From: Frondihabitans sp. 762G35
GTDB lineage: Bacteria; Actinomycetota; Actinomycetes; Actinomycetales; Microbacteriaceae
Assembly (NCBI RefSeq): GCF_002074055.1
Contig: NZ_CP014619.1
Location: 2,294,001 to 2,358,000 of the forward strand
Direction: 5' to 3'
DNA length: 64,000 bases
The notes beneath the pieces are model-generated. The model saw nothing but the letters and a program-made list of their open reading frames with translations. It was not told the DNA's origin and did no database searches. How positions within the stretch are numbered: position 1 is the first letter of the stretch; each line of letters starts with the position of its first letter. Shown piece after piece: positions 24,405 through 51,167 of this stretch. A program made the translations under genes and the position numbers.

Positions 24405-24459
24405 GAGACTCCACAACACGCCGCTCATCTTTCCCGCGAGGCGTAAATCGTGGAGTCTC
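24405..24459. repeat. 55-bp inverted-repeat element, copy A
   Basis: The termini are GAGACTCCAC and GTGGAGTCTC, perfect 10-bp inverted repeats around a 35-bp core starting AACACGCCGCTCATCTTTCC. It is the first of three in the trkA-proC convergent gap. The core and the following 30-bp spacer are repeated almost exactly in copy B. Confidence 0.9.
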
Positions 24460-24489
24460 CCGCTGCCGAGCCTTCTCCGCTCCGCGCGC

Positions 24490-24542
24490 GACTCCACAAC
24501 ACGCCGCTCATCTTTCCCGCGAGGCGTAAATCGTGGAGTCTC
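24490..24542. repeat. inverted-repeat element, copy B
   Basis: It is near-identical to copy A including the core; the left end is GACTCCAC (two bases shorter) and the right end GTGGAGTCTC. Together with matching spacers (GAGCCTTCTCCGC in both), A and B form a tandem duplication with a unit of about 85 bp. Confidence 0.9.
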
Positions 24543-24572
24543 CCACTGTCGAGCCTTCTCCGCACCGCGCGG

Positions 24573-24625
24573 GACTCCACGTTTGGGCGTGTCGGAAGAA
24601 AGTGAGTGGCGAGTCGTGGAGTCTC
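24573..24625. repeat. inverted-repeat element, copy C (reverse orientation)
   Basis: It is bounded by GACTCCAC and GTGGAGTCTC. The conserved half-core (CGACTCGCCACTCACTTTC) lies on the minus strand, so this copy is inverted relative to A and B and closest to copy D in the upp gap. Confidence 0.85.
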
Positions 24626-24698
24626 GCCGCTCGGGCAGAACAGGCAGCACGGGCAGCGCAGGCAGCACAGGCGGGGCGCACAGCGCCCGCGGCGGACG

Positions 24699-25532
24699 CT
24701 ACTGCGCGGCGATCTCCCGCGCGCGGGCCAGCGCGGCAGCCGACGCTCGACCGAAGAGCTCGTGGAGGCCGGCGCCCTGCAGCACCTCCACGGCGCGCTC
24801 GGTCGTGCCCTTGGGGCTCGTCACGCGGCGGCGCAGCTCCTCGGGGCCGATGACGTCGGCGGCGAGGAGCTCGCTCGCGCCCCGGAAGGTGCCCTGGACC
24901 ATCGTCGCGGCCTGCTGCTCGCTGAAACCGAGGTCGACGGCGGCGCGCGTCATCTCCTCGATCAGGTAGAAGACGTAGGCCGGCCCCGAGCCGGAGATCG
25001 TGGACAGGGCGTCGATGCGGTCCTCCTCGACCGTGACGACGTCGCCGACGCAGGCGAACAGGCTGCGGGCGAGGGCCAGGTCGGAGTCGGAGGACCGGCT
25101 GCCGGGCGCGAGGCCCGTCACCGCCAGCCCCACGACGGCGGGGGTGTTCGGCATCGAGCGGAGCACGACCGCCGACTCCGGCAGAGCGGCCTCCATCGTC
25201 TCGGTCGTGATGCCCGCGGCCAGGCTCACCACCACGGTGCCCGGCTCGAGCACCGGCCCGATCTCGCGGAGGAGGTCGACGACCATGTGGGGCTTCACTC
25301 CGATCAGGACGAGCTTCGCGCCGATCACGGCCGAGGCGTTCGCCTGCGCGTCGGTCTCGAGCGCCAGCGACGTCACCCCGCTGTGACGGAGGGCCGCCGC
25401 CTTGGCCTCGGTGCGGTTGGTCACGCGGATCCCGCCCTCGACCAGGACGTCGGGCCGGAGCAGCCCGGCGAGGATCGCTCCCCCCATCGATCCGGCTCCG
25501 AGAATCGCGGTCGCGGGCAGCGTCGTGGTCAT
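24699..25532 (-). CDS. proC: pyrroline-5-carboxylate reductase
   Basis: This 277-residue enzyme performs the last step of proline synthesis (P5C to proline with NAD(P)H). The N-terminal Rossmann motif is AILGAGSMGGAILAGLL. The central segment LRSMPNTPAVVGLAVTGLAPG and the C-terminal dimerisation and catalytic region ALSTISGSGPAYVFYLIEEM are standard P5CR signatures. TAGGAT lies 6 nt before the ATG at 25532. It is monocistronic and convergent with trkA across the repeat cluster. Confidence 0.95.
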   Translation of the reverse strand: MTTTLPATAILGAGSMGGAILAGLLRPDVLVEGGIRVTNRTEAKAAALRHSGVTSLALETDAQANASAVIGAKLVLIGVKPHMVVDLLREIGPVLEPGTVVVSLAAGITTETMEAALPESAVVLRSMPNTPAVVGLAVTGLAPGSRSSDSDLALARSLFACVGDVVTVEEDRIDALSTISGSGPAYVFYLIEEMTRAAVDLGFSEQQAATMVQGTFRGASELLAADVIGPEELRRRVTSPKGTTERAVEVLQGAGLHELFGRASAAALARAREIAAQ

Positions 25533-25608
25533 GGGTCCATCCTAGGATTGCGTCTGCAGGAGGCGGGGACGACCGTCCGGACACGATCACGACCATGGGA
25601 ACGACGCA

Positions 25609-48906: not shown

Positions 48907-50891
48907 CCACGACAGACCGCACCGGCAACACCGACGCGCTGGAGCAGTCCTCCCTGCCGAAGCCCCGGCGGGGTGGCCTCCGCGCCTTCCTCCTCGACGG
49001 CCTCGCCGACAGCTCCGGCCAGCACCAGGGTCCCCACGCCCAGAAGCCGGAGAAGACCAACTCGTGGTGGCGCGTCATGTGCCTCACCGGCGTCGACTAC
49101 TTCTCGACCCTGGGCTATCAGCCGGCCATCGCCGCCGTGGCCGCGGGGCTCCTCTCGCCGTTCGCGACCCTGGTGCTCATCGGCCTGACCCTCCTGGGGG
49201 CGCTCCCGGTCTACCGACGCGTGGCCCGCGAGAGCTTCAAGGGCGAGGGCTCGATCGCCATGCTGGAGCGACTGCTCCCCTGGTGGGGCGGCAAGCTCTT
49301 CGTCCTCGTGCTGCTCGGCTTCGCCGCGACCGACTTCATGATCACGATCACGCTCTCCGCGGCCGATGCCAGCGCGCACGCGATCGAGAATCCGTTCGCT
49401 CCGTCGTGGTTCCACGGGGCGCAGGTACCGATCACGCTGTTCCTCATCCTGCTGCTGGCGATCGTGTTCCTCCGCGGCTTCAAGGAGGCCATCGGCATCG
49501 CCGTGGTCCTCGTGGGCGTCTACCTCGTGCTCAACGCCGTCGTCATCGGCGTCACCCTGGTCTCCGCCCTGTCGCAGCCCATCGTGATCGGCAACTGGTG
49601 GGAGGCCCTCACCCGGCAGTACTCCTCGCCGTTCCTCGCCGTGGGCGTGTCGCTCCTGGTCTTCCCGAAGCTCGCTCTCGGCCTGTCGGGCTTCGAGACC
49701 GGCGTCGCCGTCATGCCGCAGATCAGCGGTGCGAAGGAGGACACCCCGAAGAGCCCCCTCGGCCGGATCCGCGGAGCCCAGCGGCTCCTGACCACCGCCG
49801 CGATCATCATGAGCGTCTTCCTCCTGACCTCGAGCTTCGCGACGACCCTGCTCATCCCGCAGAAGGAGTTCGAGCAGGGCGGAGCAGCCAACGGGCGAGC
49901 GCTCGCCTACCTCGCGCACGAGTACCTCGGCAACGGGTTCGGGACCGTCTACGACGTCAGCACCATCTTCATCCTCTGGTTCGCAGGAGCCTCGGCCATG
50001 GCCGGCCTGCTCAACCTGGTGCCCCGCTATCTGCCCCGCTACGGCATGGCGCCGCTGTGGGCCCGGGCCGTCCGTCCGCTCGTGCTCGTCTTCGCCGCCA
50101 TCGCGTTCATCGTCACGCTCGCGTTCGACGCCAACGTCGACAAGCAGGGTGGCGCCTACGCGACCGGCGTCCTGGTGCTCATCACGTCGGCCTCCATCGC
50201 CGTGTTCCTCTCGTGCCGTCACAAGAAGCAGCGCAAGCGCACCATCGGCTTCGCCGTGATCTCGGCGGTCTTCGTCTACACGACGATCCTCAACATCATC
50301 GAACGGCCCGAGGGCGTCCGGATCGCCGCGCTCTTCATCCTGGGCATCCTGATCGTGTCCGTCGTCTCGCGCATCCACCGCGCGCTGCAGCTCCGGGCGA
50401 CCAGCGTCTCCCTCGACTCCCAGGCCCTCTCGTTCGTCACAGAGGACGCCGACGAGTCGGGTCGGGTCATCCTCATCGCCAACGAGCCCGACGACGGCAG
50501 CCTGGCCGAGTACAAGCAGAAGGCGAAGGACGAACGGCGCTTCTCGGGGATCCCGCAGCGCTCCCCCGTCATCTTCGTCGAGGTGTGGCCGGCCGACTCG
50601 TCGAACTTCGAGGAGGACCTCGAGGTGCGCGGCGAACTGGTCCACGGCTACCGGGTGCTCCGCGTCAACAGCGGCAACATCCCGAACACGCTGGCGACGA
50701 TCCTGCTCGAGGTCCGCGACGTCACGGGTGTCGTCCCCGACATCTACTTCGAATGGACCGAGGGCAACCCGATCTCGAACTTCCTGAAGTTCCTGGTGAC
50801 CGGCGGCGGCGAGGTCGCTCCCGTGACGCGCGAGGTGCTGCGTCGGGCCGAGCCCGATCGGAAGCGCCGGCCGGACGTCCACGCGAGCTGA
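48903..50891 (+). CDS. APC-superfamily amino acid (or ion) permease
   Basis: This 662-residue protein has about 12 TM segments, beginning with [20 protein letters not shown], where the helix-1 break characteristic of APC carriers lies. It ends in a ~190-residue soluble C-terminal domain (about 470-662; [20 protein letters not shown]). A charged cytoplasmic N-terminus of 55 residues precedes the first helix. The large C-domain is reminiscent of KUP/KimA-type potassium importers, so ion transport is an alternative to amino acid transport. TAGACA lies 6 nt before the GTG, which overlaps the tag stop. Confidence 0.82.
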
Positions 50892-50935
50892 GCCCGACCG
50901 GCGTCGGCCCGGGGTCGACGTTTCGTGCGGGCGCC

Positions 50936-50990
50936 AGACTCCACAACACGCTGCTCACCTTCGGGGCGCCGCGGCGTGTCGTGGAGTCTC
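50936..50990. repeat. 55-bp inverted-repeat element, copy F
   Basis: AGACTCCAC and GTGGAGTCTC termini enclose a core AACACGCTGCTCACCTTCGG that then reads GGGGCGCCGCGGCGTGTC. Forward orientation, 45 bp after the permease stop. Confidence 0.9.
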
Positions 50991-51029
50991 GCCGGAGCAC
51001 ACCTGCCCGCCCCGCAACGCCGCCCCGCC

Positions 51030-51084
51030 AGACTCCACAACACGCTGCTCACGTTCGGGGCGCCGCGGCGTGTCGTGGAGTCTC
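51030..51084. repeat. 55-bp inverted-repeat element, copy G
   Basis: Nearly identical to copy F (one core base differs: ACCTTC versus ACGTTC), spaced 39 bp from it. A recent duplication. Confidence 0.9.
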
Positions 51085-51112
51085 GGCTGGGGCGTGATGC
51101 GGCGCCGGTCGC

Positions 51113-51167
51113 GAGACTCCACGATGTGCGGTGTTTTGCGCAAGTGAGCGGCGAGTCGTGGAGTCTC
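51113..51167. repeat. 55-bp inverted-repeat element, copy H (reverse)
   Basis: Full 10-bp termini; the conserved half-core GACTCGCCGCTCACTTGCGC is on the minus strand. Third element of this convergent gap, 35 bp before the SDR stop. Confidence 0.9.

What the first reader, a model, noticed from the sequence alone, without database searches (positions are those of the whole stretch)
24405..51167. Family of ~55-bp elements with GAGACTCCAC / GTGGAGTCTC ends
Eight copies (24405, 24490, 24573, 27803, 27886, 50936, 51030, 51113) have constant length (53-55 bp), 8-10 bp perfect terminal inverted repeats, one conserved half-core (GACTCGCCGCTCAYYTTY) and one variable half. They occur only between genes, in clusters of two or three with mixed orientation. 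Constant length with an asymmetric core is unlike an ordinary terminator and resembles REP/BIME or a tiny non-autonomous mobile element. I do not recognise it as a named family.
Basis: partly seen in the sequence, partly recalled or inferred. Interest (0 to 1): 0.75.

Follow-up and report, generated by a model that had tools for sequence, protein, structure and literature searches.

The report
Nuclease-linked, helix-phased palindromic DNA repeats
Short palindromic DNA repeats scattered behind genes in a soil and leaf bacterium keep a fixed length, sit whole turns of the double helix apart, and match palindromes that flank a nuclease gene, which suggests an unrecognised type of selfish or regulatory DNA element.

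Summary
The repeat is real: 117 exact paired-end copies in the 3.41 Mb genome against 0 for the reversed control. Elements measure 51-52 bp (57-58 bp with CGAG tags). By a home-made gene caller, 36 of 63 clusters lie between convergent genes. Neighbouring copies sit 8, 9 or 10 whole B-DNA turns apart (44 of 50; 15 of 17 for neighbours that are not duplicates). Linkers are unrelated between clusters, so the spacing is not simply inherited.

No Y1/RAYT transposase was found (0 of 7 genomes). Instead a DUF559/MTES_1575-like nuclease gene in the same genome has one copy 5' and three 3'. Homologous nuclease genes carry their own CGAG/TGAG-tagged palindromes: 22 of 27, then 6 of 10 fetched later, against 7 of 501 control genes. 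End sequences tend to follow nuclease lineage, but the three GACTCC-linked nucleases are not one clade. A named Arthrobacter plasmid shows the same arrangement.

Best reading: a REPIN/RAYT-like system built on an unrelated nuclease. That the nuclease acts on the palindromes is inferred, not shown.

The parts
24405..24459 (+). element 1 of cluster 1, 55 bp, conserved (A) half on the left
24488..24542 (+). element 2 of cluster 1 (near-identical to element 1, 83 bp on)
24571..24625 (-). element 3 of cluster 1, inverted, different variable half, 83 bp on
27803..27857 (+). element 1 of cluster 2, behind upp
27886..27940 (-). element 2 of cluster 2, inverted, different sequence, 83 bp on
50935..50990 (+). 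element 1 of cluster 3, 56 bp, conserved half on both sides
51029..51084 (+). element 2 of cluster 3, 94 bp on
51113..51167 (-). element 3 of cluster 3, inverted, 84 bp on

Best explanation
The window copies are non-autonomous members of a nuclease-associated palindrome family. SHOWN: each copy is two inverted half-sites held at a fixed 51-52 bp. Copies are additions absent from the three compared gaps of relatives, sit behind stop codons and mostly between convergent genes, and neighbours stand 8, 9 or 10 whole B-DNA turns apart. The same genome holds a DUF559/MTES_1575-like nuclease gene (G000:C1:2893521-2894426, outside the window) with one copy 5' and three copies 3'. Homologous nuclease genes in Frondihabitans, the genus of Salinibacterium soli and Arthrobacter carry their own palindromes, often with the same ends on both sides about 1 kb apart, and some of these palindromes recur elsewhere in the same genome or plasmid. 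INFERRED: the nuclease binds the half-sites as a symmetric complex and cuts or nicks at or beside them; copies spread by repair-coupled insertion and by local duplication into DNA downstream of genes; neighbouring copies are kept in helical register because complexes on adjacent copies contact each other on one face of the DNA. It works like REPIN/RAYT, with an unrelated enzyme.
For: 117 exact copies against 0 for the control. Length: with 50-63 bp allowed, 71 of 73 tagged palindromes in G000 are 57-58 bp, 21 of 21 in G004 56-58, 9 of 10 in G201 57-58, 5 of 5 in G282 58. Register: 44 of 50 distinct per-cluster distances (75-112 bp) within 1.5 bp of whole turns, 15 of 17 for non-duplicate neighbours; 0 of 5000 uniform draws as periodic; linkers between clusters no more alike than shuffles, 0.41-0.45 against 0.40-0.43. 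Gaps: trkA-proC 333 bp with three copies here, 4-108 bp in 17 relatives (20 tried, 3 not parsed); no paired element in the 6 other Frondihabitans at the upp or SDR gap apart from one 2-mismatch chance match, nor in those 20 loci apart from one such match. Nuclease: strict finder 22 of 27 homologues, 7 with palindromes on both sides and all 7 with shared ends; controls 0 of 338 and 7 of 163; remaining 10 homologues 6 of 10. Ends follow clades; similarity of ends and of proteins correlates, r 0.26, 0 of 5000 permutations. G000 partner gene. Arthrobacter: same ends on both sides; palindromes multicopy in their own records and in no other of 72,556. Spacings of 94, 83, 94 and 93.5 in families with other ends. 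Profile matches 3r3p 'Mobile intron protein', E 0.0015.
Against: No binding, cutting or movement was tested. The three nucleases with GACTCC palindromes (L457, L460, L468) are not one clade, and L468 has a copy on one side only. G201 and G087 hold GACTCC copies but none of their examined nuclease homologues has GACTCC ends. Pfam matches are weak and, for L460, below the curated cut-offs. Misses of the register: 85.5, 91, 92, 95.5, 96, 110 inside the range, and 122 and 152 outside it (177 hides a degenerate copy); one G004 pair at 70; 150 in L477 and 116 in G201. No base-exact empty site and no target duplication was seen. Control genes came from stretches fetched because they hold elements, not from random places. 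A looser palindrome finder had a high background (72 of 153 and 33 of 75 control genes), and the correlation used a loose finder.
Confidence: 0.6

Rival explanations
1. Ordinary bidirectional transcription terminators or 3' mRNA-stabilising hairpins that became a repeat family.
For: Most clusters lie 15-100 bp behind stop codons and 36 of 63 between convergent genes; the outer 9-11 bp form a strong stem and the mean folding energy is -28 kcal/mol; G004 copies are near-perfect hairpins whose halves match.
Against: 13 of 15 convergent gaps in the window have none; relatives' trkA-proC gaps are as short as 4 bp without any; no T-run follows; in G000 inner positions do not covary; helical register and matching ends around a nuclease gene are not expected.
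Confidence: 0.12
2. Architectural or topological DNA sites (as proposed for BIMEs and gyrase) bound by a host protein. The register reflects cooperative binding; nuclease genes are only one more place where copies lie.
For: Register in whole turns for unrelated neighbours; convergent-gene bias; no covariation in G000.
Against: Does not explain family-specific ends shared on both sides of nuclease genes or ends following nuclease clades.
Confidence: 0.15
3. The palindromes are operators through which the nuclease gene regulates itself; dispersed copies are decoys or a regulon.
For: 5' palindromes lie about 50-240 bp upstream of the nuclease.
Against: Copies lie behind unrelated genes, at 3' ends rather than promoters; 6 of 15 strict 3' palindromes begin in the nuclease stop codon.
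Confidence: 0.08

Closest known systems
REPINs and REP doublets with RAYT (REP-associated tyrosine) transposases
   Same: Dispersed extragenic inverted pairs of half-sites with a short terminal tag, species-specific families, tandem clusters that include flanking DNA, and a partner gene flanked by family members (passages of PMC3116915; PMC2817692).
   Different: Tag is CGAG/TGAG, not GTAG; length 56-58 bp in most families; no Y1 transposase in 7 of 7 Frondihabitans genomes; partner is a nuclease; helical register, a word that does not occur in PMC3116915 or PMC2817692.
GTAG- and CGTC-tagged REPs (Di Nocera 2013, PMC3733652: abstract, outline and passages seen)
   Same: Extragenic, mostly between unidirectional and convergent genes; the tag often supplies a stop codon; here TGAG does so in 6 of 15 strict 3' palindromes.
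   Different: Those REPs are 20-40 bp with other tags; the passages seen do not mention Actinobacteria (0 occurrences).
BIMEs
   Same: Clusters of palindromes in alternating orientation at gene 3' ends.
   Different: No known REP units; half-sites are not hairpins on their own; constant 51-52 bp.
Vsr/EDxHD-type mobile-intron nuclease (PDB 3r3p; family name recalled)
   Same: Profile of 25 homologues matches residues 232-291, E 0.0015.
   Different: About 300 aa with an extra N-terminal part; not in an intron as far as seen; carries multicopy palindromes.

Membership tests
REPIN/RAYT | Y1 (HUH) tyrosine transposase gene in the genome | tested here: not met
   PF01797: 0 of 7 Frondihabitans genomes, control rings in 5 of 14
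REPIN/RAYT | GTAG tag at the palindrome | tested here: not met
   ends are CGAGACTCC in G000
REPIN/RAYT | multicopy inverted pairs, extragenic | tested here: met
REPIN/RAYT | partner gene flanked by family members | tested here: met
   met by a nuclease gene instead:
IS110 / IS1111 | DEDD transposase | tested here: not met
   PF01548: 0 matches in G000; 2 of 7 genomes in the genus have it
MITE of a classical IS | target-site duplication and a full-length IS with the same ends | tested here: inconclusive
   no duplication noticed in the printed flanks, no systematic test; the nuclease unit is the only larger unit with these ends found
intrinsic terminator | conserved full stem and T-run | tested here: not met
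   no covariation of inner pairs in G000; no T-run in the flanks
CRISPR array | identical repeats with unique spacers of constant size | tested here: not met
   copies differ, linkers vary in length by about 10.4 bp steps and are alike within a cluster
EDxHD/DUF559 nuclease (partner gene) | conserved acidic and histidine residues | tested here: met
   D233, E244, H250, D260 invariant in 25 aligned homologues; Pfam weak, MTES_1575 21 of 25 and DUF559 16 of 25 at E<=0.1
EDxHD/DUF559 nuclease (partner gene) | cuts DNA at the palindromes | not testable with these tools
   needs biochemistry

The most novel reading that the evidence does not exclude
A previously unrecognised class of mobile DNA in Actinobacteria: units of about 1 kb in which a Vsr/EDxHD-like nuclease gene is bounded by its own tagged 56-58 bp palindromes. 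The enzyme spreads palindrome-only copies to gene 3' ends, and enzyme-bound copies dictate where the next copy lands, 8, 9 or 10 whole helical turns away, so the genome records the geometry of the complex.
Probability: 0.45. Interest if true: 0.92.

Novelty: categorically new. Interest (0 to 1): 0.85.

Why it matters
REP-type repeats with a known partner use tyrosine transposases; Di Nocera 2013 says CGTC REPs apparently lack one (abstract). A counterpart built on a nuclease, with its own tag, fixed length and helical register, would mean that bacteria arrived at this lifestyle more than once. It would suggest a function for a nuclease family annotated as hypothetical (the Arthrobacter member is), and it gives a protein-DNA geometry that can be read from sequence alone. 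I found no description of the association, but only in ten full-text searches of an open-licence library; subscription papers and preprints are not covered.

Tried and rejected
RAYT partner: not found. IS110: none in G000. A transposase beside the clusters: none among the 25 commonest of 181 Pfam families matched by 121 flanking proteins; the other 156 were not shown. Carriers of the G000 element: no match in plasmids or phages. G649 (another family): four 51-bp palindromes share GACTCCAG but have other flanks; taken as unrelated. A hairpin of G150 at the SDR gap is a single copy by exact search. Hairpin covariation: clear in G004 as a whole, weak within its two subfamilies, absent in G000. 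Loose palindrome finders: high background; not used for the association counts. Orientation rule (14 of 14 mixed clusters begin with the conserved half outermost): tentative, since only 5 rest on 51-bp copies alone and the orientation of nine 52-bp copies is ambiguous. The first gene caller was replaced by a codon-based one; both are home-made, and at least one call beside the G282 gene was on the wrong strand. In one search some SDR gaps were cut to 2-3 bp by the gene caller; one search rescanned the whole loci. An earlier count said 5-9 nuclease homologues in all Frondihabitans; one search shows 3-9 (G000 has 3).
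Full report
OBSERVATION. The eight copies exist at the stated places. Genome-wide, GACTCCACN{30,40}GTGGAGTC matches 117 times and its reversed control 0 times; with a fixed 35-base gap and <=2 mismatches it matches 146 times. In the stretches fetched around hits I counted 147 copies at <=2 mismatches: 125 of 51 bp, 20 of 52, one of 55 and one of 49; I dropped the last as chance, leaving 146 in 63 clusters. The genus is Frondihabitans: the contig lengths of G004 and G201 equal those of Frondihabitans sp. Leaf304 and PhB188.

ANATOMY. 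Each copy is two inverted half-sites. The outer box GACTCCAC pairs; in 51-bp copies positions 10-13 and most inner positions do not pair, while 52-bp copies carry the conserved half on both sides. In G000 the two halves do not covary, so DNA sequence and length rather than a full hairpin seem to be conserved. In G004 copies are mostly near-perfect palindromes of two subfamilies. A half-site pattern with no length imposed matched in 44 of 398 Microbacteriaceae genomes, with at most 2 hits each except G000 (55), G004 (34), G201 (9) and G282 (4), which belongs to another genus; the G282 hits lie in elements of 52 bp. G282's genus also holds G694, whose contig length equals that of Salinibacterium soli WY-16.

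SPACING. The 83 neighbour distances are 82-84 (36), 86 (1), 91-96 (29), 102-105 (12), and 108, 110, 122, 152, 177 (1 each); the 177 gap hides a degenerate copy. Counting each distinct distance once per cluster within 75-112 bp, 44 of 50 lie within 1.5 bp of whole turns of 10.4 bp; for neighbours that are not same-orientation duplicates it is 15 of 17 (the p-values 4e-18 and 6e-7 assume uniform spacing). Centre-to-centre means for the non-duplicate pairs are 83.4, 94.0 and 103.5 bp, or 8.02, 9.04 and 9.95 turns. Linkers are unrelated between clusters and 87% alike within, so local duplication multiplies copies while the register recurs independently. G004 pairs are 84, 94, 104 and 70 bp apart.

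CONTEXT. By a home-made gene caller, 36 of 63 clusters lie between convergent and 4 between divergent genes; element-free gaps of 40 bp or more in the same stretches are 21 and 73 of 220. In G004, G201 and G087 it is 13 of 24 convergent. In the window only 2 of 15 convergent gaps hold a cluster. The trkA-proC gap is 333 bp with three copies here and 4-108 bp without copies in 17 relatives (20 tried, 3 not parsed). The loci around upp and the SDR gene in the 6 other Frondihabitans have no paired element, apart from one two-mismatch match without a palindromic interior. One relative at the SDR gap has a different hairpin that is not a repeat.

PARTNER GENE. No Y1 transposase and no IS110 in G000. 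In G282 an ORF of 293 aa lies between two 52-bp elements. Its homologues in 12 genomes (9 with matches) number 37 at E<1e-20. I examined 27 first with a strict finder ([CT]GAG..CTC[GA], 55-59 bp): 22 have a palindrome within 400 bp 5' or 300 bp 3', 7 on both sides, all 7 with shared ends. Controls: 0 of 338 G000 genes and 7 of 163 genes elsewhere, GACTCC palindromes left out; without the three GACTCC homologues the count is 19 of 24. The other 10 homologues, fetched afterwards and tested with the same rule, gave 6 of 10 (Fisher p 1.4e-8), three of them on both sides; the remaining four have strong palindromes of other length or tag. In 6 of 15 strict 3' palindromes the tag TGAG begins in the stop codon of the gene. 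Units with shared ends on both sides are 982-1145 bp from centre to centre. Ends follow nuclease clades across species, for example GAGATGGC in L465, L477 and L478; similarity of ends and of proteins correlates, r 0.26, 0 of 5000 permutations (loose finder). The three nucleases with GACTCC ends are not one clade.

DISPERSAL OF OTHER FAMILIES. In 73 kb of G201 the CGAGRTGGCC family of nuclease L477 has four further 57-bp copies, three of them within 8 kb of that gene. In Arthrobacter plasmids, three homologues (33-38% identity) and one in a phage contig (33%) have palindromes beside them; the one in NZ_CP012477.1 has the same ends on both sides, the others one palindrome each, not all with the tag. 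The CP012477 palindrome occurs at 4 places in that record and in no other of 72,556; the StoSoilB13 palindrome at 6 and 4 places in two replicons of one strain. Spacings of 94, 83, 94 and 93.5 bp recur in families with other ends; 150 (L477) and 116 (G201) do not fit.

G000 PARTNER. L460: ORF at locus 1486-2391 (G000:C1:2893521-2894426), one copy 5' and three copies 3' in 83-bp steps, some with mismatched ends. The protein has the residues that are invariant in 25 aligned homologues, including D233, E244, H250 and D260. Pfam MTES_1575 and DUF559 match below their cut-offs; the only PDB match of the profile at E<1 is 3r3p, 'Mobile intron protein', E 0.0015. That 3r3p is an EDxHD, Vsr-like homing endonuclease is recalled.

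JUDGEMENT. The element family, its fixed length, its register and its association with a nuclease gene are shown. That the nuclease binds, cuts or spreads the palindromes is inferred. I rate it categorically new because the defining partner and tag of REPINs were tested and not met, while another enzyme takes that place; in what it does it most resembles a REPIN system.

Noticed in passing
window 38107-38257 (-): FMN riboswitch (Rfam RF00050, 85.2 bits).
   Followed up: no
L431-L436, downstream of upp: In the other Frondihabitans a promoter-like TTGACA stretch and a conserved short leader with ATGTGTTGTCGAATG follow upp, before a gene with a Trans_reg_C domain; it looks like a leader peptide.
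   Followed up: no
window 27941-28060: Short tandem repeats (GGAGCGACGCA-like) directly beside cluster 2; G-rich tandem repeats also lie beside several other clusters.
   Followed up: no
L141-L144 (G649): Another actinobacterial family has four palindromes with GACTCCAGCGGCACG inside longer AAGGGGACTCC flanks.
   Followed up: partly
L156 (IMGVR_UViG_2852063445_000001) 1252-1302: A near-perfect 51-bp palindrome with GACTCCAG ends in a viral contig.
   Followed up: no
L438 (G150) and L441 (G246), SDR gap: Different long hairpins at the gap where G000 has cluster 3; the G150 one is single-copy by exact search.
   Followed up: partly
L103 3843, L111 1929 and 6043 (other Microbacteriaceae): Isolated CGAA/CGAG-tagged 55-57 bp palindromes, possible members of further families.
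   Followed up: no
L469 (G000:C1:151126-151956): A second nuclease homologue in G000 has two CGAGTGGAC palindromes 94 bp apart upstream; no further copy in the 464 kb scanned.
   Followed up: partly
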